Assembly (NCBI GenBank): GCA_019096065.1
Contig: JAGUCH010000001.1
Span: forward strand, 12,462,001 to 12,526,000
DNA length: 64,000 bases
Direction: 5' to 3'
Source of the DNA: Paracyclopina nana
Taxonomy: Eukaryota > Arthropoda > Copepoda > Cyclopoida > Cyclopettidae
Part shown: piece after piece, positions 3,001 through 57,914 of the stretch
How the letters are laid out: the number at the start of each line of letters is the position of its first letter
How positions within the stretch are numbered: position 1 is the first letter of the stretch
Translations under genes and position numbers: made by a program
Notes under the pieces: model-generated
Database searches by the model: none
Seen by the model: only the letters and a program-made list of their open reading frames with translations
What the model was told of the DNA's origin: nothing

Positions 3001-3739
3001 CAGTTCTGTCCACGATAAAATTCAAGTGTTGGTCCAGCGCCTGCTTCCTCTTGGCCTCAATTTGTGTCTTCACAGTGAACTCGAACAGCTTTTCGACGTT
3101 ACCCCAGAAATTGCGGATTTCTCTGGCATACGAGGAGGCGATTTTTCGCAAGTTTTGCTCATGGGCCTTTTCTGCTCGGACCAGGGCAACCTCTTTGTCA
3201 CTGAAGTGCTTTTGCACCATCTTTGAGCACTTTTTACATACAAGCTGAAAAAAGAAAACAATTAAACCATCGCCCTAGTAAGTGCTCTAACGCATCTAAT
3301 GTACCTTTTTTGTCTTGCGCTCTTGCAAAATGACGCTGGATAGCCAGTTCATTTCCTCTATCACAAAATCCCAATGGGTTTTAGGCCTGGTTGGCGTCTG
3401 AATTTTGACCAGCTTCTTGCTCGCCCACAAGCCCTGCTGTTGAAGTTCGTGGATTCTCCCCAGCACTTTGGCCTCCTCTCTGCCCACCGAAACTGCCACT
3501 GGATCCTGAGACATTTTCCTAGCTGATTTTCTTGCTGAGGTCGGGAGCGATACGACGACTCCTGAAGAGCTCGTAACATCTTCCGAGGCTCTGCGAGGAG
3601 GCGTAGTCACAGGCAAAGATGGCGACCCTGTGAGGCTGTCAAGCTCCTGTTTGTAGCTCTCAATTCGCCGGCGTTTAGTCTCCACTTTTTCCCGACGAAG
3701 GTCGAGGCACCGCCGCCGCCTTTCGTCCACGGTTGCCAT
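1..3739 (-). CDS. dom: Domino/SRCAP (SWR1-type) chromatin-remodelling ATPase, N-terminal part
   Basis: Swr1-family ATPase, which in known systems exchanges histone H2A variants in nucleosomes. Exons read 3739-3305, 3244-1528 and 1469-1, with GT-AG introns of 60 and 58 bp in phases 0 and 1; the last exon runs off the window, giving 1207 codons. An HSA domain spans the first splice (about residues 120-190), followed by an acidic stretch with many D/E and then the first RecA lobe: Walker A in DEMGLGKT at 442-449 and a DEAQ box at 545-548, the SRCAP/Domino form rather than DEAH. After LRKVCNHPNLF comes an insert of about 400 residues rich in S, P and K, then the second lobe begins (LIFTQMTKVLDVLE, LRLDGSTKVEQRQ, STRSGGVGINLTGAD). 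A split ATPase with a long insert is the hallmark of this family. The start MATVDERRRR follows an in-frame upstream region without obvious coding. INO80 is less likely because of the HSA and motif wording. Confidence 0.95.
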
Positions 3740-13797: not shown

Positions 13798-16482
13798 ATG
13801 GGTAGCGTAAAGCACCGATTGGCCGAGGCCAGACAAGACTGCAACGTCGTCCTCGTCGGGGACGTCAGGGTGGGTAAATCCGCCCTCGTGAACCGGTTCA
13901 TCAACAACAAGTTCACTGAGGTAAGCCGAAGCTTTTGACAAAGGCCATTGTGCAAAGTAGCGATGCACTTTTGCATCAGACCAGATCATCGGTCCAGATA
14001 AGCGATCATGCGTATGCATCTGGCTTTTCATAAGAAATGATTAGCCTTTAATTATTATTAGCAGCGCATATCGCGTTGGCGGATAGCGGGTACATGCTTC
14101 TCCTACTTTGTATACGCGTGTGAGGCAGATGCCGCAATATGCTACATGAAGTGGGGGCCCATTAAGGTTGAATGACAGGAGGCCATTCATTATGTACCAT
14201 GTTTGCCGTGGGAGGTAGCTTTGCTAGCTGTGGGGAGATTTCAAGACTTTTTATTATCATTAGTCGTATTTTTGGTCGTCGTTGCCTGTTATCAGCGACG
14301 ACCAACGGGCGTTGCTTCGTCAGAGAGAGAGATGTGGGGTACTACGAAAATAAACATACTTTTAAGGTCAGCTCCGCAATCAACAACGACCTTCATTAGG
14401 GCTATACCCATCACAAAGGGCCGCCCCCTACTGCGGAAAATGCCATCCTAGCATACTAAGTAGAGTAATAAAGAAGAGCCCGATCAAGCCAGCATCTTGT
14501 CCCTTTAGAATGCATCGCGGTAGCCATCTTTATAGTCGTAATATTCTACTGGGTAATGGCCAACAAAGAAACTGCCAACCTCATGTTTGCTGAGAAAGAG
14601 TTGTTTTCCTGCGGCCAAATTGAAGTAACACCAGCGCCGCGCGGCTCTGTCAAAATCAACAAAATGGAGCGATGCAACAACACTTTTACGACAATTTCTC
14701 CCTGGAGCTTTGTCCGTCGCAACAATTATGCTGTTATCATCGCGAAGCACCTTTTTGTCCGCAAAAGTTTGGGAGTCACATTTCGATTTTCCTGTCAATA
14801 TTGTAGTAGCCGAGCATGACCCCGAGCTAGAGGAGATAATAATAACGTAGTCGTCGTGGATGGCGTCTCTTTTGTTCTTGACTAAAGTGGCCTGTTTCAT
14901 TTTCTAGCACTACAAAGCTACTGCCTTCGAGAAGTTCACCACGAGTGCCATGGTGGCCAACCGACGCGTCAAGTACACCATTTGGGATACCACAGGTGAG
15001 AGCCATTACTATATTGATAACTGCAAATAGTCTTCTTCCTCGAGCTACGACCTCGCGTGTACAAACACAATGGGTTGTGCGCTATTTATGCGTCGTATTA
15101 CGACATCAAGTACTCCAAAGTCATTTGCCTAGTTCGTGCTGCGAAGCATTTGTGACTGCTCAATGTCGGAATTGTATTAGCCTTCACCTTAAAAAAAGAT
15201 GTGAAGCAGCAGCACCACATTGGCAACTCCTCTTTCATGATTTCCAAATGAAGTGGTTTGCATAAAGCAGCCATATCAATGTGGGCGTCAAAAGGACGCA
15301 GTAAAAAGCAGAGTGCGGAATTGAAAGTAGTCCAAATGTGGAGGCCAATGCTGAGTGCGCATGATTGAAATTCTCTTTCCGGGTGTAGCACTACAAAATA
15401 TGATGGTGGGGGAATGCGAGCCTTATAAGGAGCTACACTAGAATTCAGCACAGCATTATTTATCGATCTGTAAGAGTTTTCCGCTCCAATAGAAACCTTG
15501 AGGGTCTGGCGATAATGTATCAATAAAAGCGAATCCCTAAAAAATCCCCAGCGCACGAAATAGCGAAAATGCGTGATCCTCGACTTACGGGCGACATTTG
15601 ATTGTTACAGGATCCCACGCCGTCAGCTCCTCACGAGCCCTGGCATATCGCGAGGCCGATGTCTTTCTCCTCTGCTACAAAATCACCGAGCCATCATCAC
15701 TGTTCAATGCCATGAATCACTGGTGCCCTGAGGTCAGATCCGTGGCTCCGGCTACTCCCATTATTCTTGTCGGCTGCCAAGCTGACCTCAGAAAGGACAG
15801 GGAGATCTTGGCCAATCTCTCAAAACAGGGCAGAGCTCCCATTAGTCCTGACCAGGCACTGACCTTTAGCCAGCAAATAAATGCACTCATGTATGTGGAA
15901 ACGAGCGCCAGAACGTCCACGAGGGCAGCAATTTCGGCATTCGAAGTGGCGGGCCTCGCGGCCATGGGGAAATTGGTCAAGCCGAGGTCACCGAGGTCGA
16001 CGCCGTCTCCAAAGCCGGCAGACAAGAAGAAGCAGAGGTACAGCTCTTCCTCGCCCCAGAATTCGCTGGATCGTAGCGATGACATAAGCAGCACTGAAGA
16101 CGCGCCTGACCCCTTTTGGCTAGCCTCGCCCAAATTGATGAGCCGATCTACCTCAGAGGCTCCAAGGACACCCAGCCTGCAGAGCTCGAGGTCGGCCAGC
16201 CTCAGCTCCAAGTCGATCCCTTCGATTTCTTCGTTGGGCTCCAAGACTCCCAAGGCCGCTCGCAAATCATCGATGAAGTCCAATCAAGCGGAGAAAACCA
16301 TGACCATCAAGTGCCAGAGGTTGACGGCGGACCGCACCTACGAGGAGATCGAGGTGGAAGTGCCGGTGCCCATTTATGAGACGATTCAGCTGTACAATGA
16401 CACAGGAAGCTTAGCTGCCCGCAGCAAAGAGCGTCGATCCTTCGGAACCAAGCTGAAGAATTTGTTCACCAGAGCCGATTGA
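13798..16482 (+). CDS. Rnd-like atypical Rho GTPase, paralogue A (no CAAX box)
   Basis: Exons 13798-13920, 14908-14995 and 15611-16482 join in frame (phases 0 and 1) to 360 residues. P-loop GDVRVGKS is at 21-28, switch I threonine at T46, DTTG at 68-71, and a GCQADLR motif stands where most Ras proteins have NKxD; an ETSA motif follows. In Rac numbering, position 12 is V and position 61 is S. These changes, with the GCQ/KxDLR motif, are known from Rnd1-3, Rho proteins that hydrolyse GTP poorly and stay GTP-bound. Inference: this protein is also GTPase-defective and acts on the cytoskeleton. Switch II is more diverged than in paralogue B (no Y-D pair). The tail is S/P/K-rich and ends LKNLFTRAD without a prenylation cysteine, so membrane binding, if any, must use the basic tail. 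A 100-codon frame starting at 13503 overlaps the start codon in another frame. Exon phases match the gene at 52546-55982. Confidence 0.9.
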
Positions 16483-20755: not shown

Positions 20756-20764
20756 ATTTCTAAC
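20756..20764. repeat. Left 9-bp target-site duplication
   Basis: ATTTCTAAC, identical to 32120-32128. The bases on either side of the two copies differ, so the match is exactly 9 bp and stops at the ends of the element. Confidence 0.8.
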
Positions 20765-20843
20765 CGTATATACAAAAAACAGCATCATACCGCACCAAAC
20801 CGCACCGAATAGCACCATACCGCACCATACTAAAAACCGCACC
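20765..20843 (+). repeat. Left terminal inverted repeat with CCGCACC sub-repeats
   Basis: After the terminal 18 bases come four or five copies of a (A/T)CCGCACC-type block ending CATACTAAAAACCGCACC. The same order, in reverse complement and with more blocks, forms the right terminus at 32010-32119. An A+T-rich spacer of about 80 bp (20844-20921) separates it from the satellite. Confidence 0.75.
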
Positions 20844-20921
20844 ATAACAAAAAGAGTAATAAAAAAATTCAACTAAATAACAAAATTTCAAATCGCAGAT
20901 ATTAAAATAAAAATAAACCAA

Positions 20922-23900
20922 GCCAAAAACAGGGCTACCGCACCGAACCGCACTCATAGTAGTAAAACAAGGCTATGATGCAAAAATTGCTTTGAGGCAT
21001 CTCATGGCCCAAAAGCTGATTGGACCTCATGAGTTAGGTCCCAGAGAGTCCAAAACCAGCCCTAACTCAAAAACTTTACTACATGGTGCGGTACGCTAGA
21101 GGCCAAAAACGCGGCTGCTACCGCACCCATAGTAGTAAAACAAGGCTATGATGTAAAAATTACTTTGAGGCATCTGATGGTCCAAAACCTGACTGGACCT
21201 CATGAATTAGGTCCCAGAGAGTCCAAAACCAGTCCTAACTCAAAAACTTTACTACACGGTGCGGTACGCTAGAGGTCAAAAACAGGGCTACCGCACCGAA
21301 CCGCACCCATAGTAGTAAAACAAGGCTTTTGGGTAAAAATTACTTTGAGACATCTGATGGTCCAAAACCTGACTAGACCTCATGAGTTAGGTCCCAGACA
21401 GTCCAAAACTAGTCCTAACTCAAAAACTTTACTACACGGTGCGGTACGCTAGAGGCCAAAAACGCGGCTACCGCACCCATAGTAGTAAAACAAGGCTATG
21501 ATGTAAAAATTACTTTGAGGCATCTCATGGTCCAAAACCTGACTGGACCTTATGAGTTAGGTCCCAGAGAGTCCAAAACCAGTCCTAACTCAAAAACTTT
21601 ACTACACGGTGCGGTACGCTAGAGGTCAAAAACAGGGCTACCGCACCGAACCGCACCCATAGTAGTAAAACAAGGCTTTTGGGTAAAAATTACTTTGAGA
21701 CATCTGATGGACAAAAACCTGACTGGACCTCATGAGTTAGGTCCCAGAGAGTCCAAAACCAGCCCTAACTCAAAAACTTTACTACACGGTGCGGTACGCT
21801 AGAGGCCAAAAACGCGGCTGCTACCGCAACCGTAGTAGTAAAACAAGGCTATGATGTAAAAATTACTTTGAGACATCTGATGGTCCAAAACCTGACTGGA
21901 CCTCATGAGTTAGGTCCCAGAGAGTCCAAAACCAGTCCTAACTCAAAAACTTTACTACACGGTGCGGTACGCTAGAGGCCAAAAACGCGGCTGCTACCGC
22001 ACCCATAGTAGTAAAACAAGGCTATGATGTAAAAATTACTTTGAGGCATCTCATGGTCCAAAACCTGACTGGACCTTATGAGTTAGGTCCCAGAGAGTCC
22101 AAAACCAGTCCTAACTCAAAAACTTTACTACACGGTGCGGTACGCTAGAGGTCAAAAACAGGGCTACCGCACCGAACCGCACCCATAGTAGTAAAACAAG
22201 GCTTTTGGGTAAAAATTACTTTGAGACATCTGATGGACAAAAACCTGACTGGACCTCATGAGTTAGGTCCCAGAGAGTCCAAAACCAGCCCTAACTCAAA
22301 AACTTTACTACACGGTGCGGTACGCTAGAGGCCAAAAACGCGGCTGCTACCGCAACCGTAGTAGTAAAACAAGGCTATGATGTAAAAATTACTTTGAGAC
22401 ATCTGATGGTCCAAAACCTGACTGGACCTCATGAGTTAGGTCCCAGAGAGTCCAAAACCAGTCCTAACTCAAAAACTTTACTACACGGTGCGGTACGCTA
22501 GAGGCCAAAAACGCGGCTGCTACCGCACCCATAGTAGTAAAACAAGGCTATGATGTAAAAATTACTTTGAGGCATCTCATGGTCCAAAACCTGACTGGAC
22601 CTTATGAGTTAGGTCCCAGAGAGTCCAAAACCAGTCCTAACTCAAAAACTTTACTACACGGTGCGGTACGCTAGAGGTCAAAAACAGGGCTACCGCACCG
22701 AACCGCACCCATAGTAGTAAAACAAGGCTTTTGGGTAAAAATTACTTTGAGACATCTGATGGTCCAAAACCTGACTGGACCTTATGAGTTAGGTCCCAGA
22801 GAGTCCAAAACCAGTCCTAACTCAAAAACTTTACTACACGGTGCGGTACGCTAGAGGCCAAAAATGCGGCTGCTACCGCACCCATAGTAGTAAAACAAGG
22901 CTATGATGTAAAAATTACTTTGAGGCATCTCATGGTCCAAAACCTGACTGGACCTTATGAGTTAGGTCCCAGAGAGTCCAAAACCAGTCCTAACTCAAAA
23001 ACTTTACTACACGGTGCGGTACGCTAGAGGTCAAAAACAGGGCTACCGCACCGAACCGCACCCATAGTAGTAAAACAAGGCTTTTGGGTAAAAATTACTT
23101 TGAGACATCTGATGGTCCAAAACCTGACTGGACCTTATGAGTTAGGTCCCAGAGAGTCCAAAACCAGTCCTAACTCAAAAACTTTACTACACGGTGCGGT
23201 ACGCTAGAGGCCAAAAACGCGGCTGCTACCGCACCCATAGTAGTAAAACAAGGCTATGATGTAAAAATTACTTTGAGGCATCTGATGGTCCAAAACCTGA
23301 CTGGACCTTATGAGTTAGGTCCCAGAGAGTCCAAAACCAGTCCTAACTCAAAAACTTTACTACACGGTGCGGTACGCTAGAGGTCAAAAACAGGGCTACC
23401 GCACCGAACCGCACCCATAGTAGTAAAACAAGGCTATGATGCAAAAATTGCTTTGAGGCATCTCATGGTCCAAAACCTGACTGGACCTTATGAGTTAGGT
23501 CCCAGAGAGTCCAAAACCAGTCCTAACTCAAAAACTTTACTACACGGTGCGGTACGCTAGAGGCCAAAAACGCGGCTGCTACCGCACCCATAGTAGTAAA
23601 ACAAGGCTATGATGTAAAAATTACTTTGAGGCATCTCATGGTCCAAAACCTGACTGGACCTTATGAGTTAGGTCCCAGAGAGTCCAAAACTAGTCCTAAC
23701 TCAAAAACTTTACTACACGGTGCGGTACGCTAGAGGTCAAAAACAGGGCTACCGCACCGAACCGCACCCATAGTAGTAAAACAAGGCTTTTGGGTAAAAA
23801 TTACTTTGAGACATCTGATGGACAAAAACCTGACTGGACCTCATGAGTTAGGTCCCAGAGAGTCCAAAACCAGTCCTAACTCAAAAACTTTACTACACGG

Positions 23901-26669
23901 TGCGGTACGCTAGAGGCCAAAAACGCGGCTGCTACCGCAACCGTAGTAGTAAAACAAGGCTATGATGTAAAAATTACTTTGAGACATCTGATGGTCCAAA
24001 ACCTGACTGGACCTCATGAGTTAGGTCCCAGAGAGTCCAAAACCAGTCCTAACTCAAAAACTTTACTACACGGTGCGGTACGCTAGAGGCCAAAAACGCG
24101 GCTGCTACCGCAACCGTAGTAGTAAAACAAGGCTACAATGTGAAAATTACTATGAGGCATCTCATGGTCCAAAACCTGACTGGACCTCATGAGTTAGGTC
24201 CCAGAGAGTCCAAAACCAGTCCTAACTCAAAAACTTTACTACACGGTGCGGTACGCTAGAGGCCAAAAACGCGGCTACCGCACCCATAGTAGTAAAACAA
24301 GGCTATGATGCAAAAATTGCTTTGAGGCATCTCATGGCCCAAAAGCTGATTGGACCTCATGAGTTAGGTCCCAGAGAGTCCAAAACCAGTCCTAACTCAA
24401 AAACTTTACTACACGGTGCGGTACGCTAGAGGCCAAAAACGCGTCTGCTGCCGCACCCATAGTAGTAAAACAAGGCTATGAAGTAAAAATTACTTTGAGG
24501 CATCTCATGGTCCAAAACCTGTCTGGACCTTATGAGTTAGGTCCCAGAGAGTCCAAAACCAGTCCTAACTCAAAAACTTTACTACACGGTGCGGTACGCT
24601 AGAGGTCAAAAACAGGGCTACCGCACCGAACCGCACCCATAGTAGTAAAACAAGGCTTTTGGGTAAAATTTACTTTGAGACATCTGATGGTCCAAAACCT
24701 GACTGGACCTTATGAGTTAGGTCCCAGAGAGTCCAAAACCAGTCCTAACTCAAAAACTTTACTACACGGTGCGGTACGCTAGAGGCCAAAAACGCGGCTG
24801 CTACCGCACCCATAGTAGTAAAACAAGGCTACAATGTGAAAATTACTTTGAGACATCTGATGGTCCAAAACCTGACTGGACCTCATGAGTTAGGTCCCAG
24901 AGAGATCAAAACCAGTCCTAACTCAAAAACTTTACTACACGGTGCGGTACACTAGAGGCCAAAAACGCGGCTGCTACCGCATCCATAGTAGTAAAACAAG
25001 GCTATGATGTAAAAATTACTTTGAGGCATCTCATGGTCCAAAACCTGACTGGACCTCATGAGTTAGGTCCCAGAGAGTCCAAAACCAGTCCTAACTCAAA
25101 AACTTTACTACACGGTGCGGTACGCTAGAGGCCAAAAATGCGGCTGCTACCGCATCCATAGTAGTAAAACCAGTCTACAATGTGAAAATTACTTTGAGAC
25201 ATCTGATGGTCCAAAACCTGACTGGACCTCATGAGTTAGGTCCCAGAGAGTCCAAAACCAGTCCTAACTCAAAAACTTTACTTCACGGTGCGGTACGCTA
25301 GAGGCCAAAAACGCAGCTACCGCACCCATAGTAGTAAAACAAGGCTATGATGCAAAAATTGCTTTGAGGCATCTCATGGCCCAAAAGCTGACTGGACCTT
25401 ATGAGTTAGGTCCCAGAGAGTCCAAAAGCAGCCCTAACTCAAAAACTTTACTACACGGTGCGGTACGCTAGAGGCCAAAAACGCGGCTACCGCACCCATA
25501 GTAGTAAAACAAGGCTATGATGCAAAAATTGCTTTGAGGCATCTCATGGCCCAAAAGCTGATTGGACTTCATGAGTTAGGTCCCAGAGAGTCCAAAAGCA
25601 GCCCTAACTCAAAAACTTTACTACACGGTGCGGTACGCTAGAGGCCAAAAACCCGGCTACCGCACCCATAGTAGTAAAACAAGGCTATGATGCAAAAATT
25701 GCTTTGAGGCATCTCATGGCCCAAAAGCTGATTGGACCTCATGAGTTAGGTCCCAGAGAGTCCAAAAGCAGCCCTAACTCAAAAACTTTACTACACGGTG
25801 CGGTACGCTAGAGGCCAAAAACGCGGCTACCGCACCCATGGTAGTAAAACAAGGCTATGATGCAAAAATTGCTTTGAGGCATCTCATGGCCCAAAAGCTG
25901 ATTGGACCTCATGAGTTAGGTCCCAGAGAGTCCAAAATCAGCCCTAACTCAAAAACTTTACTACACGGTGCGGTACGCTAGAGGCCATAAACACGGCTAC
26001 CGCACCCATAGTAGTAAAACAAGGCTATGATGCAAAAATTGCTTTGAGGCATCTCATGGCCCAAAAGCTGATTGGACCTCATGAGTTAGGTCCCAGAGAG
26101 TCCAAAAGCAGCCCTAACTCAAAAACTTTACTACACGGTGCGGTACGCTAGAGGCCAAAAAGGCGGCTACCGCACCCATAGTTTTAAAACAAGGCTATGA
26201 TTCAAAAATTGCTTTGAGGCATCTCATGGCCCAAAAGCTGATTGGACCTCATGAGTTAGGTCCCAGAGAGTCCAAAAGCAGCCCTAACTCAAAAACTTTA
26301 CTACACGGTGCGGTACGCTAGAGGTCAAAAACAGGGCTACCGCACAGAACTGCACACATAGTAGTAAAACAAGGCTTTTGGGTAATAATTACTTTGAGGC
26401 ATCTCATGACCCAAAAGCTGATTGGACCTCATGAGTTAGGTCCCAGAGAGTCCAAAATCAGCCCTAACTCAAAAACTTTACTACACGGTGCGGTACGCTA
26501 GAGGCCATAAACGCGGCTACCGCACCCATAGTAGTAAAACAAGGCTATGATGCAAAAATTGCTTTGAGGCATCTCATGGCCCAAAAGCTGATTGGACCAC
26601 ATGAGTTAGGTCCCAGAGAGTCCAAAAGCAGCCCTAACTCAAAAACTTTACTACACGGTGCGGTATGCT
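20922..26669 (+). repeat. Left satellite arm, about 33 units of 170/173/180 bp
   Basis: Tandem head-to-tail units. Unit length depends on the linker: GGCTACC gives 170 bp, GGCTGCTACC gives 173 bp, and GGCTACCGCACCGAACCGCACC gives 180 bp. Units of different type alternate, so part of the arm repeats at 526 bp (180+173+173), for instance markers at 21709 and 22235, and part at about 350 bp. The stretch nearest the centre (about 25290-26650) is mostly 170-bp units with GCTTTGAGGCATCTCATGGC. Each unit contains two internal dyads: GGACCT...AGGTCC, and GGTGCGGTA...TACCGCACC across the linker. Confidence 0.95.
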
Positions 26670-26699
26670 AGAGGCCAAAAACGCGGCTTTCGGTGCAGT
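26670..26699. repeat. Centre of the palindrome (about 30-nt loop)
   Basis: CTTTACTACACGGTG on the left (from 26646) and its near-complement CACCGTGTAGTAACG on the right (to 26721) flank this loop. The orientation of the satellite switches here. The short spacer means the whole 11 kb could in principle fold back on itself. Confidence 0.75.
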
Positions 26700-29600
26700 A
26701 GCACTTCACCGTGTAGTAACGTTTTTGAGTTAGGACTGGTTCTGGACTCTCTGGGACCTAACTCATGAGGTCCAATCAGCTTTTGGGCCATGAGATGCCT
26801 CAAAGTAATTTTCACATTGTAGCCTTGTTTTACTACTATGGGTGCGGTAGCCGCGTTTTTGGCCTCTGTTTTACTTCTATTGTTGCCATTCAGTTTTATA
26901 AGCATCAAGCTTCAGTTTATTATTAATTTTAGCGTACCGCACCGTGTAGTAAAGTTTTTGAGTTAGGACTAGTTTTGGACTCTCTGGGACCTAACTTATG
27001 AGGTCCAATCAGGTTTTGGACCATCAGATGTCTCAAAGTAATTTTTACCCAAAAGCCTTGTTTTACTACTATGTGTGCAGTTCTGTGCGGTAGCCCTGTT
27101 TTTGACCTCTAGCGTACCGCACCGTGTAGTAAAGTTTTTGAGTTAGGGCTGCTTTTGGACTCTCTGGGACCTAACTCATGAGGTCCAATCAGCTTTTGGG
27201 CCATGAGATGCCTCAAAGTAATTATTACCCAAAAGCCTTGTTTTACTACTATGGGTGCGGTAGCAGCCGCGTTTTTGGCCTCTAGCGTACCGCACCGTTT
27301 AGTAAAGTTTTTGAGTTAGGACTAGTTTTGGACTCTCTGGGACCTAACTCATGAGGTCCAGTGAGGTTTTGGACCATCAGATGTCTCAAAGTAATTTTCA
27401 CATTGTAGCCTTGTTTTACTACTATGGATGCGGTAGCCGCGTTTTTGGCCTCTAGCGTACCACACTGTGTAGTAAATTTTTTGAGTTAGGAATGGTTTTG
27501 GACTCTCTGGGACCTAACTCATGAGGTCCAGTCAGGTTTTGGACCATCAGATGTCTCAAAGTAATTTTTACCCAAAAGCCTTGTTTTACTACTATGAGTG
27601 CGGTTCGGTGCGGTAGCCCTGTTTTTGACCTCTAGCGTACCGCACCGTGTAGTAAAGTTTTTGAGTTAGGACTGGTTTTGGACTCTCTGGGACCTAACTC
27701 ATGAGGTCCAGTCAGGTTTTGGACCATCAGATGCCTCAAAGTAATTTTTACATCATAGCCTTGTTTTACTACTATGGGTGCGGTAGCAGCCGCGTTTTTG
27801 GCCTCTAGCGTACCGCACCATGTAGTAAAGTTTTTGAGTTAGGACTGGTTTTGGACTCTCTGGGACCTAACTCATAAGGTCCAGTCAGGTTTTGGACCAT
27901 GAGATGCCTCAAAGTAATTTTTACATCATAGCCTTGTTTTACTACTATGGGTGCGGTAGCAGCCGTGTTTTTGGCCTCTAGCGTACCGCACCGTGTAGTA
28001 AAGTTTTTGAGTTAGGACTGGTTTTGGACTCTCTGGGACCTAACTCATAAGGTCCAGTCAGGTTTTGGACCATGAGATGCCTCAAAGTAATTTTTACATC
28101 ATAGCCTTGTTTTACTACCATGGGTGCGGTAGCAGCCGCGTTTTTGGCCTCTAGCGTACCGCACCGTGTAGTAAAGTTTTTGAGTTAGGACTGGTTTTGG
28201 ACTCTCTGGGACCTAACTCATAAGGTCCAGTCAGGTTTTGGACCATGAGATGCCTCAAAGTAATTTTTACATCATAGCCTTGTTTTACTACCATGGGTGC
28301 GGTAGCAGCCGCGTTTTTGGCCTCTAGCGTACCGCACCGTGTAGTAAAGTTTTTGAGTTAGGACTGGTTTTGGACTCTCTGGGATCTAACTCATGAGGTC
28401 CAGTCAGGTTTTGGACCATCAGATGTCTCAAAGTAATTTTCACATTTTATTCTGGTTTTACTACTTGGGTGCGGTAGCAGCCGCGTTTTTGGCCTCTAGC
28501 GTACCGCACCGTGTAGTAAAGTTTTTGAGTTAGGACTGGTTTTGGACTCTCTGGGACCTAACTCATGAGGTCCAGTCAGGTTTTGGACCATGAGATGCCT
28601 CAAAGTAATTTTTTCATTGTAGCCTTGTTTTACTACTATGGGTGCGGTAGCAGCCGCGTTTTTGGCCTCTAGCGTACCGCAACGTGTAGTAAAGTTTTTG
28701 AGTTAGGACTGGTTTTGGACTCTCTGGGACCTAACTCATGAGGTCCAGTCAGGTTTTGGACCATCAGATGTCTCAAAGTAATTTTCACATTTTATTCTGG
28801 TTTTACTACTATGGATGCGGTAGCAGCCGCGTTTTTGGCCTCTAGCGTACCGCACCGTGTAGTAAAGTTTTTGAGTTAGGACTGGTTTTGGACTCTCTGG
28901 GACCTAACTCATAAGGTCCAGTCAGGTTTTGGACCATGAGATGCCTCAAAGTAATTTTTACATCATAGCCTTGTTTTACTACTATGGGTGCGGTAGCAGC
29001 CGCGTTTTTGGCCTCTAGCGTACCGCACCGTGTAGTAAAGTTTTTGAGTTAGGACTGGTTTTGATCTCTCTGGGACCTAACTCATGAGGTCCAGTCAGGT
29101 TTTGGACCATCAGATGTCTCAAAGTAATTTTCACATTTTATTCTGGTTTTACTACTATGGATGCGGTAGCAGCCGCGTTTTTGGCCTCTAGCGTACCGCA
29201 CCGTGTAGTAAAGTTTTTGAGTTAGGACTGGTTTTGGACTCTCTGGGACCTAACTCATGAGGTCCAGTCAGGTTTTGGACCATGAGATGCCTCAAAGTAA
29301 TTTTTTCATTGTAGCCTTGTTATACTACTATGGGTGCGGTAGCAGCCGTGTTTTTGGCCTCTAGCGTACCGCACCATGTAGTAAAGTTTTTGAGTTAGGA
29401 CTTGTTTTGGACTCTCTGGGACCTAACTCATAAGGTCCAGTCAGGTTTTGGACCATGAGATGCCTCAAAGTAATTTTTACATCATAGCCTTGTTTTACTA
29501 CTATGGGTGCGGTAGCAGCCGTGTTTTTGGCCTCTAGCGTACCGCACCGTGTAGTAAAGTTTTTGAGTTAGGACTGGTTTTGGACTCTCTGGGACCTAAC

Positions 29601-31940
29601 TCATAAGGTCCAGTCAGGTTTTGGACCATGAGATGCCTCAAAGTAATTTTTACATCATAGCCTTGTTTTACTACTATGGGTGCGGTAGCAGCCGCGTTTT
29701 TGGCCTCTAGCGTACCGCACCGTGTAGTAAAGTTTTTGAGTTAGGACTGGTTTTGGACTCTCCATGAGGTCCAGTCAGGTTTTGGACCATCAGATGTCTC
29801 AAAGTAATTTTCACATTTTATTCTGGTTTTACTACTTGGGTGCGGTAGCAGCCGCGTTTTTGGCCTCTAGCGTACCGCACCGTGTAGTAAAGTTTTTGAG
29901 TTAGGACTGGTTTTGGACTCTCTGGGACCTAACTCATGAGGTCCAGTCAGGTTTTGGACCATGAGATGCCTCAAAGTAATTTTTACATCATAGCCTTGTT
30001 TTACTACTATGGGTGCGGTAGCAGCCGCGTTTTTGGCCTCTAGCGTACCGCACCGTGTAGTAAAGTTTTTGAGTTAGGACTGGTTTTGGACTCTCTGGGA
30101 CCTAACTCATGAGGTCCAGTCAGGTTTTGGACCATCAGATGTCTCAAAGTAATTTTCACATTTTATTCTGGTTTTACTACTATGGATGCGGTAGCAGCCG
30201 CGTTTTTGGCCTCTAGCGTACCGCACCGTGTAGTAAAGTTTTTGAGTTAGGACTGGTTTTGGACTCTCTGGGACCTAACTCATGAGGTCCAGTCAGGTTT
30301 TGGACCATCAGATGCCTCAAAGTAATTTTTTCATTGTAGCCTTGTTATACTACTATGGGTGCGGTAGCAGCCGCTTTTTTGGCCTCTAGCGTACCGCACC
30401 GTGTAGTAAAATTTTTGAGTTAGGACTGGTTTTGGACTCTCTGGGACCTAACTCATGAGGTCCAGTCAGGTTTTGGACCATGAGATGCCTCAAAGTAATT
30501 TTTTCATTGTAGCCTTGTTTTACTACTATGGGTGCGGTAGCAGCCGCGTTTTTGGCCTCTAGCGTACCGCACCGTGTAGTAAAGTTTTTGAGTTAGGACT
30601 GGTTTTGGACTCTCTGGGACCTAACTCATGAGGTCCAGTCAGGTTTTGGACCATGAGATGCCTCAAAGTAATTTTTACATCATAGCCTTGTTTTACTACT
30701 ATGGGTGCGGTAGCAGCCGCGTTTTTGGCCTCTAGCGTACCGCACCGTGTAGTAAAGTTTTTGAGTTAGGACTGGTTTTGGACTCTCTGGGACCTAACTC
30801 ATGAGGTCCAGTCAGGTTTTGGACCATGAGATGCCTCAAAGTAATTTTTTCATTGTAGCCTTGTTATACTACTATGGGTGCGGTAGCAGCCGCGTTTTTG
30901 GCCTCTAGCGTACCGCACCGTGTAGTAAAGTTTTTGAGTTAGGACTGGTTTTGGACTCTCTGGGACCTAACTCATGAGGTCCAGTCAGGTTTTGGACCAT
31001 GAGATGCCTCAAAGTAATTTTTTCATTGTAGCCTTGTTTTACTACTATGGGTGCGGTAGCAGCCGCGTTTTTGGCCTCTAGCGTACCGCACCGTGTAGTA
31101 AAGTTTTTGAGTTAGGACTGGTTTTGGACTCTCTGGGACCTAACTCATAAGGTCCAGTCAGGTTTTGGACCATGAGATGCCTCAAAGTAATTTTTACATC
31201 ATAGCCTTGTTTTACTACTATGGGTGCGGTAGCAGACGCGTTTTTGGCCTCTAGCGTACCGCACCGTGTAGTAAAGTTTTTGAGTTAGGACTGGTTTTGG
31301 ACTCTCTGGGACCTAACTCATGAGGTCCAGTCAGGTTTTGGACCATCAGATGCCTCAAAGTAATTTTTACATCATAGCCTTGTTTTACTACTATGGGTGC
31401 GGTAGCAGCCGCGTTTTTGGCCTCTAGCGTACCGCACCGTGTAGTAAAGTTTTTGAGTTAGGGCTGGTTTTGGACTCTCTGGGACCTAACTCATGAGGTC
31501 CAGTCAGGTTTTGGACCATCAGATGCCTCAAAGTAATTTTTACATCATAGCCTTGTTTTACTACTATGGGTGCGGTAGCAGACGCGTTTTTGGCCTCTAG
31601 CGTACCGCACCGTGTAGTAAAGTTTTTGAGTTAGGACTGGTTTTGGACTCTCTGGGACCTAACTCATGAGGTCCAGTCAGGTTTTGGACCATCAGATGCC
31701 TCAAAGTAATTTTTACATCATAGCCTTGTTTTACTACTATGGGTGCGGTAGCAGCCGCGTTTTTGGCCTCTAGCGTACCGCACCGTGTAGTAAAGTTTTT
31801 GAGTTAGGGCTGGTTTTGGACTCTCTGGGACCTAACTCATGAGGTCCAATCATCTTTTGGGCCATGAGATGCCTCAAAGTAATTTTCATATCATAGCCTT
31901 GTTCTACTTCTATGGGTGCGGTAGCCGCGTTTTTGGCCTC
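26700..31940 (-). repeat. Right satellite arm, about 30 units in inverse orientation
   Basis: The same satellite read on the other strand, about 173-bp units. It carries variants scarcely seen in the left arm, such as CACATTTTATTCTGG (near 28441, 28790, 29133, 29815 and 30157), while the TTACCCAAAAGCC variant occurs only near the centre (27046-27590). One unit near 29761 has lost about 18 bp. The arms therefore differ in detail. Confidence 0.95.
26867..26930 (+). repeat. 64-bp spacer block, central copy
   Basis: TGTTTTACTTCTATTG through TTATTATTAATTTT, identical to 31941-32004. It sits between two satellite units about 170 bp right of the palindrome centre. The other copy lies between the satellite and the right terminus. 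The left terminus has a different A+T-rich spacer. Confidence 0.85.
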
Positions 31941-32004
31941 TGTTTTACTTCTATTGTTGCCATTCAGTTTTATAAGCATCAAGCTTCAGTTTATTATTAA
32001 TTTT
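31941..32004 (+). repeat. 64-bp spacer block, right-terminal copy
   Basis: Identical to the central copy at 26867-26930 over all 64 bases, with the same left neighbour (GCGTTTTTGGCCTC). It is followed by T9 and the right terminal repeat. Confidence 0.85.
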
Positions 32005-32009
32005 TTTTT

Positions 32010-32119
32010 GGGTGTGGTTTTTAGTATGGTGCGGTTTGGTGCGGTTTGGTGTGGTTTGGTGCGGTTTGGTGCGGTTTGGTGCGGAATAATGCTTTAGGGT
32101 GCGGTTTTTAGTATGTACC
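32010..32119 (-). repeat. Right terminal inverted repeat with GGTGCGGTTT sub-repeats
   Basis: Contains GGTGTGGTTTTTAGTATGG, then six tandem GGTGCGGTTT-type blocks, then AATAATGCTTTAGGG, GTGCGGTTTTTAGTATGTAC. It is the inverse of the left terminus with extra blocks. Confidence 0.75.
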
Positions 32120-32128
32120 ATTTCTAAC
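32120..32128. repeat. Right 9-bp target-site duplication
   Basis: ATTTCTAAC, identical to 20756-20764. Confidence 0.8.
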
Positions 32129-37625: not shown

Positions 37626-38209
37626 TTTATATGATGGAAAGCAATTTTCGCATGTATAATTCAGTTTACCAATTCGTCTCAGTTCATATTACTATACATA
37701 TATAAAAGCTCTGACGTTTAACTTTATCAAGTGACACGCATTATAAAGTATTTTATAAGGTGTGTTGGTCCTCTGTTTGACCAGAGACCATGATATTGTC
37801 CAAGAAGTAAATCCCATGTTAGAAAAAGGAGAAAATGCCCAGTATGGGGATCGAACCCTTATCATCTAGATTAGGAGGCCAACGCTCTACTGTCTTAGCT
37901 ACCAATACAGACAGAATAATTAATGTCAGAATTCCTTCTTATTCTTATTCTCAGCTGAGCTAAGCTTAGTAGAACAGTAGAGCCTTTTCAGAGGTACCAG
38001 ACAAAACTTAATCTAACACATCTTTTAGCCCCCAAAAATGCCAAATTCTAAATGCACAATTTTTAATTGATTGATTAACGCTTTCTGTTACTCTTGCACT
38101 ACTGAGGGCCTCTCAACCCTAGCCTTCAAGTAATGGATCAGGTGCTAAGTCAAGATCGCCTGGTCTGGTAACTTCATTAACATTTGAAAATTACTTTCCA
38201 TCATATAAA
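37626..38209. mobile_element. Composite inverted-repeat element containing a tRNA-like sequence
   Basis: TTTATATGATGGAAAG at the left end is repeated inverted at 38194-38209 (CTTTCCATCATATAAA), continuing as CAATTTTC / GAAAATTA, about 30 bp in all. The left 185 bp (37626-37811) occur again at 57416-57592 with over 90% identity by eye. A tRNA-like segment follows on the minus strand. This could be a tRNA-derived SINE inside an inverted-repeat element, or a MITE that captured a tRNA pseudogene. Confidence 0.55.
37836..37908 (-). pseudogene. tRNA-Arg(CCT)-like sequence (SINE head or tRNA pseudogene)
   Basis: Read on the minus strand it has an A-box-like TAGCTAAGACAGTAGAGC, an anticodon loop CTCCTAA (anticodon CCT), and a B box GGTTCGATCCC, ending CTGGGCA. 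The T arm pairs in four of five positions. The acceptor stem and anticodon stem are poorly paired, so a working tRNA is unlikely. The two internal promoter boxes are intact enough for RNA polymerase III. Confidence 0.6.
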
Positions 38210-38210
38210 A

Positions 38211-38403
38211 TCGTATATATATGTAAACAAATTATAAAACAGGCTTACAAAACATCTGAGCTCATTTTGCAAAGTAAAAATCTCGTGGCATTACTTGGCT
38301 CTCGCAAGCTCGAGCCCGCAAAAATGCCACTCGATTTCTACTTTACAAAATTTGCTCAGCTATTTTATTAGCTTGTTTTATAAATTGTTTACATATATAA
38401 ATA
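38211..38403. repeat. Inverted repeat, about 190 bp
   Basis: TATATATGTAAACAAATTAT at the left pairs with ATAAATTGTTTACATATATA at the right. The arms extend inwards through AAAACA.GCT and ATCT.GTGGCAT to a centre near 38305. The right-arm sequence TAAATTGTTTACATAT also follows the second copy of the neighbouring repeat, at 57594, so the two repeats probably belonged together. Confidence 0.6.
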
Positions 38404-39756
38404 GATATTTTCAAGGGCACGGTTTAGAGCCACCCTGGAGTGGCACTCGGTAATAGCGCAATTTTTGAAGCCAGCTGAGGATACAAGTGCTCGCGCGCGC
38501 AATTTCAGTAAGCTATAAAGCCCTCGATACGAAAATGTAATGTATAGCCAACAAGAAAAGGAAAATGCCAAGTCACTTATGATTGATACAATTTTTCGCT
38601 AGCTGCTGCTGTTGATCAATGCTGCAAGAAAAACAAGCTCCCCTCTGCTCTGTGGTGTTTGCCAACCTGTAATGAAATGCGCCTGATAGTAACGATAATA
38701 GATGCCGAGCAATCGACACTTCTTTTCAAATAGCTTGCTTATCTTCTTGAGGAGTCAGGAATAACAATAAAAAGAACCCAACCCTCCCCAACATTTGCTT
38801 ATCTGCATTCCTTATCAATTAATTTTTTTTAGTCGAATTCAGTATTTTGCCACGGCAACAACATGGGTAAGATTATGTGTCAAAGTCTACATCATCTAGT
38901 CTGTTGTTCCGTGTCATTAACAGCCAGAATTTCCGGCTTTTTGTACGCTAGTACAAAAGCCAAAACCGCAATATAGAAATAGCTCTCGAAAGAAAATTAC
39001 ACGGCTCTCTTGATGAAAGTATCCGAAACGCCTGAATCCAACTGGCAATTGGCAGTGTGTCATTCAGAGCAACACAACACGCAAACAAGACAATTATTGC
39101 CATCATTATTTTTGAGGCTTCCAATAATATTGCTATATACATGTGAAGTGCGCGCAACGGCAATCATACCTGCGTAATTCCTAGAATCTCCTCTCTCAGA
39201 GGAAAATGCACTCAGCTCTAACTTAAGTATTAAAAATGTATGAATAGCTGGCTGCTGAAAAAGACAACTAATTCTCTGGCTTTCCATTATGACTTGGGCA
39301 ATTTTTGTTTCTGCCCACAAAAAGGAAATACATAGGGGGTCAAACAAAGCCTTTGACATATTTTTTGTCAACCCTATCCGTAACAAATGAGGCTGTTGCT
39401 GCAAAGTAACAGCAGCGTTTCAAGTAGATTGTCTCTTAAGTCAAGAGGTGACTGTTTGAAGCTTCTTTCTCAACTTCATCCCCAAGAAGCAACAAAAGGA
39501 GATTCACAACAACTAGTGCACGGAAAAAATTCTGTTGAGTAATTCGAGCAGTTTTGCACCGCGCCAAAAGTAGAAGCAGCAGCGATTATCAGCCATTTAA
39601 AAAGCAATTAACTGAATGAATTAGGGCAGTAAACTAGAAGAGATCGCAACGAGCCAACCTAATCTCCAATCAGCGCAGATCCTCCACTTTTTATCGCGTT
39701 ATTCAAACATATGCTTGAACGCCTATAAAGGATTTCCTTAGTGCACTCCCGCTATA
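38404..39756. other. Gap upstream of the aquaporin gene
   Basis: No gene recognised. A non-coding first exon of the aquaporin gene must lie somewhere in or left of this stretch if the acceptor at 40230 is used, but it could not be located. Confidence 0.4.
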
Positions 39757-43085: not shown

Positions 43086-43758
43086 AGTCTATTACAGAAC
43101 ATACAGAGATGCATAACAGGAGATAATTTATGCAGCTCGAGCGCCTTGGGCGATGCTTTAAGTATTTTCTGAGCTCGAAAAATTCTCTCTTTGTTCAGTG
43201 CTCAAGGTAGAAAAAAGGGGGTTGCGGCTTCGTGTACAAGGGATATTTTTTATGAGAAATTTACTGACGCGCATCAAGGCCACATTTGCATTACTACTTG
43301 CCTAACTCTCAACATGTGTGTACTTATGGGCTGGTTGGATTCCATTGGATGATGCATGAAGAAAGAAAGGTTATGATTAACACCGTGAACCAACTCTCTC
43401 CTTCTCCACGCATAATTTCATTTCATTAAAATATGCTGTGGATCAGGCTGCCATATAAAGGTCCTTTTTCCGACCCACCCTACCAACGTAGCAAAAAAAT
43501 GAAGCCCCAAAATTCCTTCCCAATATTTTTCCTGCCCTCAGGACATAGCCCCATGAACCTTAAAGCCGTTGCTCATTCCGCTGCTGACACTGTTTTTTCA
43601 TCAACTGCTACATACAAGGATGATGTTGTGGTAATTGTTAGGTTGACTACACTATAGTAGATGAGCAAAGCTAATTTTTCACGGGGGTTGCTCTACTATT
43701 GTTAGATATGGCGGTTGCGGCAGTTTGTCAGATTTATTACAGCAATAATGCGAAAATC
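43086..43758. other. Short gap, nothing recognised
   Basis: About 670 bp between the 787-bp element and the 208-bp duplication, with no supported feature. Confidence 0.4.
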
Positions 43759-44174
43759 ATCGGTGGTGCTCCCACCAAGACAAATTCATCCTGTCTTCTT
43801 GCATGGACCATAAGTGCAGCATGACTTTTTTAGGGAAATTGCTACATTTATCGTTCTAGCGAGAGCATACGCCCATCCATCTTCGTACAGCCGAGGAGGT
43901 TTTTCATCTTCCTCCTCAGATGTAGCCAGATTCTGGCCCTCCACTTATAATAGCACACTCTTCTACATCGGTGGTGCTCCCACCAAGACAAATTCATCCT
44001 GTCTTCTTGCATGGACCATAAGTGCAGCATGACTTTTTTAGGGAAATTGCTACATTTATCGTTCTAGCGAGAGCATACGCCCATCCATCTTCGTACAGCC
44101 GAGGAGGTTTTTCATCTTCCTCCTCAGATGTAGCCAGATTCTGGCCCTCCACTTATAATAGCACACTCTTCTAC
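43759..44174. repeat. Perfect tandem duplication of 208 bp
   Basis: 43759-43966 and 43967-44174 are identical by eye, starting ATCGGTGGTGCTCCCACC and ending CACACTCTTCTAC. Perfect identity implies a very recent duplication or an assembly duplication. Short open frames inside show no domain. Confidence 0.9.
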
Positions 44175-56999: not shown

Positions 57000-57914
57000 G
57001 GGAATACTGTAAAAAGTCCTCAATGTCAAAAGTCCTGATATATAAAATCCTCATTTAAAAAGTCCTGATATATGAAGTCTTAATGTAAAAAGTCCTGATG
57101 TAAAAAATTACGCTCTGCAAAGACTATTTTTTTACAAATATCAATAATTGTTTGATAAAATATTAAGGCATGTATTTCATGTATGAAACAAAATTACCGA
57201 CACTGCTTTTATTGAATATGTTTGACTTATCTTAAGATCTCCATCGACTTACGTCAAGACCAGAAAGGTGAATCGATTGGTCAAAGTAATCTTAGATTGG
57301 CCACTGTTTGTTTACTATTATTAACTTATTTGATTAAGAAAAAGTAAAAGTTGGCCAATAAAATTCTATCATAATTGCCGGTAAAAAAGTTGGTTGTTAC
57401 ATTGCCTTTGATACTTTTATATGATGGAAAGCAATTTTCTCATGTATAATTCAGTTTACCAATTTGTCTCAGTTCATATAACTACACATATATAAAAGCT
57501 CTGACGTTTAACTTTATCAAGTGACACACATTATAAAGTATTTTATAAGGTGTGTTGCTCCTCTGTTACCATGATATTGTCAAAGAAATAAATTGTTTAC
57601 ATATGTAAATAGATATTCCCCATACTGCATAGGAATTCGCGCACGCGCTTGCTGAAAAATTAGTAATTAAGAGAAATTAGAAATTGACCCTTTCTGGTCT
57701 TGCCATTTGGCGATGGAGATCTTTAGACATATCAATGCAAGAGTCCTCTCTATTTTTATTTTTTTTTTAATTGGAACTTATGACATCCTTTGTTCACATA
57801 AAAGGACTTTTGATATCTGGTCTTTATATGAGCGGACTTTTAGTATTTGGACTTTTTGCATCCGGACTTTTTTTATCTGGACATTTCACATCGCGGACTT
57901 TTTACAGTACATCC
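57000..57914. mobile_element. Foldback/Mutator-like element, 915 bp, AAAAAGTCC sub-repeat ends
   Basis: Left end (57000 to about 57110) is TACTGTAAAAAGTCC followed by spaced blocks of AAAAGTCCTGATATAT. The right end (about 57780-57914) is the inverse: TACTGTAAAAAGTCC, then AAAAAGTCCGGATG, AAAAGTCCAAATAC. An 8-bp direct repeat, AATTGAAG, flanks the element at 56992-56999 and 57915-57922. The interior includes the dispersed repeat at 57416-57626. No transposase is visible. Confidence 0.78.
57416..57626. repeat. Second copy of the 37626 repeat
   Basis: Starts TTTATATGATGGAAAGCAAT and follows 37627-37806 closely, with a few substitutions and a short deletion at CTCTGTTACC. It lacks the tRNA-like part and joins directly to the TAAATTGTTTACATATGTAA sequence seen at 38383. 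It is nested in or part of the 915-bp element. Confidence 0.8.

What the first reader, a model, noticed from the sequence alone, without database searches (positions are those of the whole stretch)
20756..32128. An 11.4-kb palindromic satellite that appears to have inserted as one Foldback-type element
Two satellite arms of 5.7 and 5.2 kb in opposite orientation are capped by short related termini, and an exact 9-bp direct repeat (ATTTCTAAC) abuts both termini. The sequence shows the orientation switch, the inverted termini and the flanking repeat. Foldback elements with sub-repeat ends and 9-bp duplications are known, but arms made of more than 60 copies of a complex 173-bp satellite at this size would be remarkable. 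It would mean a satellite array can be mobile, or can grow inside a mobile element.
Basis: partly seen in the sequence, partly recalled or inferred. Interest (0 to 1): 0.88.

Follow-up and report, generated by a model that had tools for sequence, protein, structure and literature searches.

The report
Jumping DNA made of satellite repeats
An 11-kb back-to-back palindrome of satellite repeats has inserted into a chromosome as a single mobile unit, and sister copies elsewhere in the same genome show that whole satellite arrays can travel as transposons.

Summary
Window 20765-32119 is an 11,355-bp palindrome of 33 + 30 satellite monomers between related inverted termini, flanked by exact ATTTCTAAC copies. 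The Foldback reading is also largely right. Nine more two-ended copies were read. Nine of the ten have their own, different, perfect 9-bp duplication; 0 of 90 swapped pairs match. Three copies (5.1, 9.9, 18.2 kb) entered repeats whose uninterrupted versions exist elsewhere, one of them in this window. The window copy itself has no empty site. Four copies with identical left termini and an identical palindrome centre carry 14/13 to 33/30 monomers per arm. The 8-bp motif of the termini recurs in the monomers; a second subfamily carries a one-base variant in its arms. A candidate transposase gene abuts one arm, but membership of MULE/Rehavkus is not established. Foldbacks with satellite-like arms are known (Tetris, Rehavkus-1_TC), so this is a new, extreme variant rather than a new kind. 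The host is unidentified; TTAGG-type contig ends suggest an arthropod.

The parts
20756..20764 (.). left 9-bp target-site duplication ATTTCTAAC
   Evidence: exact copy of 32120-32128; only two occurrences in the window
20765..20946 (+). left terminus (CGTATATACAAAAAACAGC...), with 10-bp ACCGCACCAT-type sub-repeats
   Evidence: identical over 182 bp in the C5:5749363, C3:9302297 and C5:4711560-4716628 copies; genome-wide terminus pattern search, 28 matches against 0 for the reversed control
20947..26688 (+). left satellite arm, 33 monomers spaced 170-180 bp, partly a 353-bp higher-order repeat
26689..26706 (.). 18-bp centre of the palindrome (TTCGGTGCAGTAGCACTT)
   Evidence: identical 26-bp junction in 4 copies at 4 genomic places
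26707..31922 (-). right satellite arm, 30 monomers in reverse orientation
31923..32119 (-). right terminus (reads GGTACATACTAAAAACCGCACC... on the - strand), with 10-bp sub-repeats
32120..32128 (.). right 9-bp target-site duplication ATTTCTAAC
37679..38251 (+). not part of the element: uninterrupted copy of the dispersed repeat that the sister element at C5:4711560-4716628 entered (paralogous empty site)
   Evidence: 580-column alignment across the joined flanks, 84.7% identity, 14 gaps;

Best explanation
This is a non-autonomous cut-and-paste DNA transposon of the Foldback type whose body is a satellite palindrome. A transposase acting in trans recognises the paired termini, and probably also the ACCGCACC motif repeated in the monomers, and moves the whole unit (3.5-18.2 kb in the nine duplication-bearing copies), leaving 9-bp target duplications. 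Between jumps the arms lengthen and shorten by unequal exchange or replication slippage of monomers, so copies with the same left end and centre differ about two-fold in array length. SHOWN: anatomy, locus-specific 9-bp duplications, paralogous empty sites for three copies, a shared palindrome centre, array-length differences between copies with identical left ends. INFERRED: that a MuDR/Foldback-group transposase is the enzyme, that monomer motifs are binding sites, and that unequal exchange or slippage is the length-changing process.
For: Nine of ten two-ended copies carry their own perfect 9-bp duplication (ATTTCTAAC, CAAGAAAAC, CCTTCAAAC, TAGTAGAAG, CAAAATTTG, GTTGTGAAC, CTGCAGTGT, CAGTTTGAA, GTTTGTGGC); 0 of 90 swapped pairs match. 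Paralogous empty sites: C4:6154541 copy (39 of 62 listed matches, at 23 places, run across the junction) and C5:4711560 copy (18 of 62, at 18 places); the C5 site also in this window (84.7% over 580 columns); C2:7737764 copy (one place, 94.3% over 245 columns, of which only about 27 bp lie left of the junction). Same centre in 4 copies. Left 182 bp identical in 4 copies whose arms hold 33/30, 22/21, 15/17 and 14/13 monomer hits. In these four copies the nearest relative of a monomer, ties included, lies in another copy for 120 of 153 monomers, against 1 of 93 in the C4 and C6 copies (254 full-length monomers of seven copies). Motif: 476 ACCGCACC and 0 AACGCACC in the arms of 7 subfamily-A copies; 0 and 222 in 2 subfamily-B copies. 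A third set of 60 exact termini: 3 of 4 fetched loci show both ends, and all 3 have 9-bp duplications.
Against: One two-ended copy (C3:4605525-4608310) has unequal flanks, GTGAACCCC / CTTCCCTTT. The C7 copy holds an extra internal right terminus that has no matching repeat. One palindromic array (C5:7324917-7328951) lacks both intact ends, keeping only a piece of one terminus. No transposase gene was found between two intact termini. None of the 6 PF10551 hits lies within 100 kb of a terminus listed (the last list is cut). The gene beside the C5:4726520 arm matches no Pfam family (joined-frame form) and the genome's MULE protein only at E = 0.044. The right termini of the four young copies are not identical (2-20 differences per 100 unaligned positions, mostly from sub-repeat number). 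The window's own target has no empty site. Matches were capped (about 150 of 347 and of 439 listed), and one search did not even list the window's own array, so arrays outside elements are not excluded.
Confidence: 0.88

Rival explanations
1. The satellite array was already at the site. Inversion or unequal exchange made the palindrome, and the 9-bp repeats are chance or part of the satellite edge.
For: Satellites do invert and expand in place (recalled); one palindromic array (C5:7324917-7328951) lacks intact termini.
Against: Perfect duplications in 9 of 10 copies, each different, with 0 of 90 swapped pairs equal. Uninterrupted targets for three copies. Identical centre at four places.
Confidence: 0.03
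2. The inverted arms and their lengths are an assembly artefact.
For: Arrays and palindromes are hard to assemble (recalled) and reads were not available. One of 8 contig ends read is N, which may be an assembly gap or a withheld stretch.
Against: Copies at different places share the plan with different lengths and flanks. The central junction is identical in 4 subfamily-A copies; the two subfamily-B copies share a different centre that differs by one short unit. Both edges of 9 of 10 copies carry matching duplications. Exact monomer counts could still be wrong.
Confidence: 0.04
3. Arrays are dispersed by another route: rolling-circle (Helitron-like) capture or re-insertion of extrachromosomal satellite circles by recombination.
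For: Satellite-carrying Helentrons are described (PMC7492417, search listing only). Circles could explain rapid length change.
Against: Inverted termini at fixed edges and 9-bp duplications fit cut-and-paste. Helitrons make no such duplication (recalled), and circle re-insertion would not be expected to keep both termini at the edges.
Confidence: 0.04
4. The element is one non-coding form of a family whose coding member is the C5 gene, i.e. the arms are terminal repeats of an autonomous transposon from which the middle was lost. (This refines the best explanation rather than excluding it.)
For: C3:4605525-4608310, with two termini and two arms, holds in its middle about 220 bp that are 90% identical to the 3' end of the C5 gene and abut the arm. 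That gene has consistent GT-AG introns and D/D/E-like and C-x-x-H motifs (read by eye), and two equally spaced relatives at C1:1154283 and C2:226129.
Against: No Pfam domain. In L027 the gene end adjoins the arm with the left-type terminus, in L012 the arm with the right-type terminus. The four young copies have only 18-23 bp between arms, so nothing in them recalls a middle.
Confidence: 0.5

Closest known systems
Tetris (Drosophila virilis Foldback transposon; PMC4079207, passages read)
   Same: Long inverted termini with ~220-bp tandem repeats in variable number, non-coding, 8-10-bp duplications, linked to longer satellite-like arrays (fibre-FISH there shows long arrays flanked by two terminal domains), transposase not found.
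   Different: Sequenced Tetris inverted repeats reach 1,735 bp, with a distinct middle domain and three structurally complete copies; its authors suggest that larger arrays (up to 66 repeats) may have disrupted the element. Here arms of 13-53 monomer hits lie inside sequenced, duplication-flanked copies (eight of the nine counted; the C7 copy has 13 and 7), and the arms meet within 0-32 bp in those eight.
Rehavkus-1_TC (Tribolium; PMC10218199 passages) and the Rehavkus group (PMC6446971 passages)
   Same: 9-bp duplications (group table); a satellite with a 164-bp unit in the inverted termini of Rehavkus-1_TC; hosts in Arthropoda and Annelida.
   Different: [quoted passage not shown] Rehavkus transposases are said to bear a PHD finger. 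Here arms are longer, most copies have no middle, and no Pfam domain was found in the candidate gene (its 5' part is not fully held).
Galileo (Drosophila, P superfamily; PMC3573991 passages; PMC3688188 abstract)
   Same: Foldback-like arms with tandem repeats of variable number; extra transposase-binding sites in those repeats.
   Different: Inverted repeats of about 0.3-1.3 kb with up to three ~210-bp repeats in the passages seen; its transposase is of P type, whose shorter duplication is recalled only.
Tm1 (root-knot nematodes; PMC3169594 passages)
   Same: Mutator/Foldback element with asymmetric end motifs, sub-repeats, mostly 9-bp duplications, MITE-like and coding groups.
   Different: Sub-repeats of 13-15 bp; no complex satellite in the passages seen.

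Membership tests
Foldback-type element (structural class) | long inverted arms containing tandem sub-repeats, of variable length between copies | tested here: met
   10-bp sub-repeats in the window termini; 13-53 monomer hits per arm in eight of nine copies counted, 13 and 7 in the C7 copy, 8 and 4 in C3:4605525
Foldback-type element (structural class) | 9-bp target duplication specific to each insertion | tested here: met
   9 of 10 two-ended copies; 0 of 90 swapped pairs
Foldback-type element (structural class) | empty target site | tested here: met
   paralogous empty sites for 3 copies; none for the window copy; the other five duplication-bearing copies gave no listed spanning match in a search crowded by repeats
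MuDR/Foldback (MULE or Rehavkus) superfamily | MULE- or Rehavkus-type transposase between the same termini | tested here: inconclusive
   candidate gene beside one arm, not shown between two termini; no Pfam match; E = 0.044 to the genome's own MULE protein; 6 PF10551 hits not near listed termini; 3 of 9 weak MULE-like fragments lie within 3 kb of a listed terminus or monomer
MuDR/Foldback (MULE or Rehavkus) superfamily | 9-bp duplications (usual length) | tested here: met
   compatible with, but not proof of, this superfamily
Rehavkus | PHD finger in the transposase | tested here: inconclusive
   no Pfam domain at E up to 10 in the joined-frame form and one further frame of the C5 gene; its 5' part is not fully held
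Satellite DNA | long head-to-tail arrays of a complex monomer | tested here: met
   33 and 30 monomers spaced 170-180 bp for the most part
Satellite DNA | main arrays in heterochromatin or centromere, independent of transposons | tested here: inconclusive
   all but one (C1:11842612, not read) of the listed matches fall in loci read here as intact or broken elements, but about 150 of 439 were listed and the window's own array was not among them

The most novel reading that the evidence does not exclude
The satellite is the working part of the transposon: each monomer carries transposase-binding motifs, termini and monomers evolve together (one subfamily has ACCGCACC in its arms, the other AACGCACC), and longer arms attract more transposase. 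The array is then selected to grow, and a transposon makes and spreads satellite DNA as its own transposition organ.
Probability: 0.35. Interest if true: 0.8.

Novelty: new variant of a known kind. Interest (0 to 1): 0.66.

Why it matters
How satellite arrays arise and appear at new places is an old question. Here whole arrays of 5-18 kb are caught as unit insertions with intact target duplications and empty sites, and copies with the same left end and centre differ in array length. One genome therefore offers a natural series for measuring how an array grows or shrinks after a jump, and the terminus-monomer motif match gives a direct binding test.

Tried and rejected
Autonomous copy by size: the 18.2-kb copy looked coding, but its interior is a BEL/Pao-type retrotransposon nested in the array (Pfam Peptidase_A17, RVT_1, DUF5641, and Integrase_H2C2 and DUF1759 below their cut-offs). 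MULE route: PF10551 gave 6 hits, none within 100 kb of a listed terminus; part of one was read and is a MULE protein with a RING finger. PF20700 gave nothing, and its controls were silent too, so this says nothing. A search with that MULE protein gave 27 matches. Nine are weak ~40-60-aa fragments (E 0.002-0.28), and three of these lie within 3 kb of a listed terminus or monomer (C2:14386413 near C2:14388779, C2:5074083 near C2:5075902, C1:11839895 near C1:11842612). By my rough arithmetic 1-2% of places would do so. I could not read them, so this stays a lead.

Loci L018-L025, hit by the terminus query, are copies of a ~1-kb dispersed repeat that carries a fragment of terminus in the same flank; they were not counted as insertions. 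Loci in which only one terminus, or none intact, was found (L012, L016, L026, L028, L029, L031-L035, L049, L050, L055, L056, and L047 of the third set) were left out of the duplication count. Whole-element megablast between the four young copies gave no collinear match over 170 bp at 97% identity, so I used monomer strings (judged by eye). A PDB sequence search with the candidate transposase gave only one insignificant hit. Paper searches; no title or abstract start in these listings shows a foldback with sequenced arms of this size, but the library lacks most subscription papers. PMC13359780 and PMC9659126 were also looked at in passages without a closer case. Host identity was not resolved; oribatid mite or cladoceran were guesses only.

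Errors of mine: one search failed in its script (bad pattern), repeated. In some searches the C2:7737764 copy was off by one base because two fetched stretches overlap by one base (therefore printed 8 of 10); corrected (9 of 10). The subfamily-B copy on C2 carries the same extra base, and its arm count includes the nested retrotransposon.

Full report
WHAT IS THERE. The window lies at C1:12462001-12526000 of a 92-Mb, 10-contig genome. Five of the eight contig ends read show TTAGG-type repeats, which suggests an arthropod (the rule is recalled); the host was not identified. At 20765-32119 lies an 11,355-bp palindrome. It consists of a 182-bp left terminus, 33 satellite monomers on the + strand, 18 bp of centre, 30 monomers on the - strand, and a right terminus. 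Both outer edges abut ATTTCTAAC, which occurs nowhere else in the window. Monomer spacing is mostly 170, 173 or 180 bp, and TRF also reports a 353-bp period. The termini hold 10-bp sub-repeats of the ACCGCACC type. That 8-mer occurs 128 times in the window, 127 of them inside the element, against 0.86 expected.

IS IT MOBILE? Searches with the termini (the reversed control patterns gave 0 matches) led to copies elsewhere. Ten copies with both termini were read in full. Subfamily A: the window copy (11,355 bp); C5:5749363-5757145 (7,783); C3:9302297-9308006 (5,710); C5:4711560-4716628 (5,069); C7:3034535-3038080 (3,546, with an extra internal right terminus that has no matching repeat); C4:6154541-6164419 (9,879); C6:3757434-3767252 (9,819). 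A-like but more diverged: C3:4605525-4608310 (2,786). Subfamily B: C3:2329197-2343796 (14,600) and C2:7737764-7755970 (18,207). Nine of the ten have a perfect 9-bp direct repeat of their own; C3:4605525 does not. None of 90 swapped left-right pairs agrees. A third set of termini has 60 exact matches. Four of its loci were fetched; three show both ends, and these three also have 9-bp duplications.

EMPTY SITES. Joined flanks of the nine duplication-bearing copies were searched in the genome (62 listed matches, 40 of 751 candidates scored). 39 of 62 (23 places; some repeats match in both halves) run across the junction of the C4:6154541 copy. 18 of 62 (18 places) run across that of C5:4711560. 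The remaining 5 cross no junction or only by a few bases. C7:2128840-2129029, for example, matches query 654-843 with equal length on both sides. The C5 target repeat also lies uninterrupted in this very window (about 37679-38251, 84.7% over 580 columns). The C2:7737764 target lies in L048 (94.3% over 245 columns, but only about 27 bp of it left of the junction). These are paralogous empty sites: the copies entered repeats whose other members remain whole. The window copy entered single-copy DNA, and only its own two flanks match, so it has no empty site in this assembly.

ONE ORIGIN, CHANGING LENGTH. Four copies (window, C5:5749363, C3:9302297, C5:4711560) have identical 182-bp left termini and an identical 26-bp central junction. 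They therefore most likely descend from one palindrome. Their right termini differ, mainly in the number of 10-bp sub-repeats. Their arms hold 33/30, 22/21, 15/17 and 14/13 monomer hits. The first full-length monomer type of the right arm (O) is the same in all four; further in, the order differs (judged by eye). In these four copies the nearest relative of a monomer, ties included, lies in another copy for 120 of 153 monomers; in the C4 and C6 copies for 1 of 93. The simplest reading is that whole arrays jump and then change length locally. Exact counts depend on the assembly.

MOTIF SHARED BY TERMINI AND MONOMERS. In the arms of seven subfamily-A copies ACCGCACC occurs 476 times and AACGCACC never; in two subfamily-B copies the counts are 0 and 222 (the C2 count includes the nested retrotransposon). 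The B termini carry both forms, the A termini only ACCGCACC (first and last 120 bp). Galileo, another Foldback-like element, has extra transposase-binding sites in its terminal tandem repeats (PMC3688188, abstract). I propose the same here, as inference. The difference between subfamilies is one evolutionary contrast, not nine independent ones.

THE ENZYME. A length of 9 bp fits the MuDR/Foldback group (PMC6446971 and PMC3169594, passages). Beside the arm that ends at C5:4726520 lies a spliced gene with GT-AG introns and D, D, C-x-x-H and E motifs that I read by eye. It has two equally spaced relatives and one with a longer frame elsewhere. The middle of the C3:4605525 element contains about 220 bp, 90% identical, of the 3' end of this gene, abutting an arm, so gene end and arm have been parts of one element. 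Against a firm claim: no Pfam match; only E = 0.044 to a MULE protein of the same genome; no left end found; and the arm concerned ends in the left-type terminus in one case and the right-type in the other. The C5:4711560 copy sits beside it, in a repeat that appears to lie in the same gene. I call it a candidate. A separate lead: three of nine weak MULE-like fragments lie within 3 kb of a listed terminus or monomer; they could not be read.

PLACE AMONG KNOWN THINGS. It works like a Foldback element and meets the structural tests. Superfamily membership is not settled. Tetris and Rehavkus-1_TC show that satellites in Foldback arms are known: inverted repeats up to 1.7 kb in sequenced Tetris copies, with longer arrays between terminal domains seen by fibre-FISH, and mostly five and eight monomers in Rehavkus-1_TC. 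What appears new is scale in sequenced intact copies (13-53 monomer hits per arm in eight of nine counted), a body that is almost only satellite (fraction 0.91-0.95 in six of the nine copies counted; 0.90, 0.82 and 0.44 in the others, the last with a nested retrotransposon), and a set of jumped copies with the same left end and centre but different array lengths. The paper searches listed no such case; the library is partial.

Noticed in passing
window 37626-38409: Copy of a dispersed repeat (about 90% to pieces of L032, L027 and L011) that is the uninterrupted target of a sister satellite element on C5.
   Followed up: yes
window 57008-57903: Two 15/30-bp minisatellite patches in opposite orientation about 0.7 kb apart (80% over 61 bp); possibly another small foldback-like element.
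   Followed up: partly
window 43758-44174: A 208-bp unit present twice in tandem at 100% identity.
   Followed up: no
L052 (C2:7740001-7750000): BEL/Pao-type retrotransposon with long open frames nested inside one arm of the 18.2-kb satellite element.
   Followed up: partly
L018-L025, L049, L050, L033: A ~1-kb dispersed repeat (L018-L025; parts shared with L049 and L050) carrying a fragment of the foldback terminus in a constant flank; L033 shows the L049-type flank (ATTTTTTAT) at a second terminus.
   Followed up: partly
L046, L048, L054 and 60 genome places: A family with related ends (GGTACATACTAAATACCGCACA) and 9-bp duplications in the three two-ended copies read (0.85-2.2 kb, interiors different by eye). 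Pairing listed coordinates by eye suggests many of 0.7-2 kb and one of about 5.7 kb (C2:2622682-2628343) that could not be read.
   Followed up: partly
L033 (C6:1883572) and L034 (C4:8055356): Two subfamily-B left ends share the same 30-bp flank including ATCCTAAAT, so one insertion seems to have been duplicated along with its surroundings.
   Followed up: no
G000 C1:11839895-11842783, C2:14386413-14388799, C2:5074083-5075923: Weak MULE-like fragments (E 0.002-0.03) within 3 kb of a satellite monomer or terminus match; possible decayed coding members.
   Followed up: no
L057 (C6:2031300-2033300): MULE transposase domain joined to a C-terminal RING finger in one open frame.
   Followed up: no
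window 1520-3220, 15598-16482, 52546-54054: Host-like frames: SNF2 helicase domain and two Ras-family domains.
   Followed up: no
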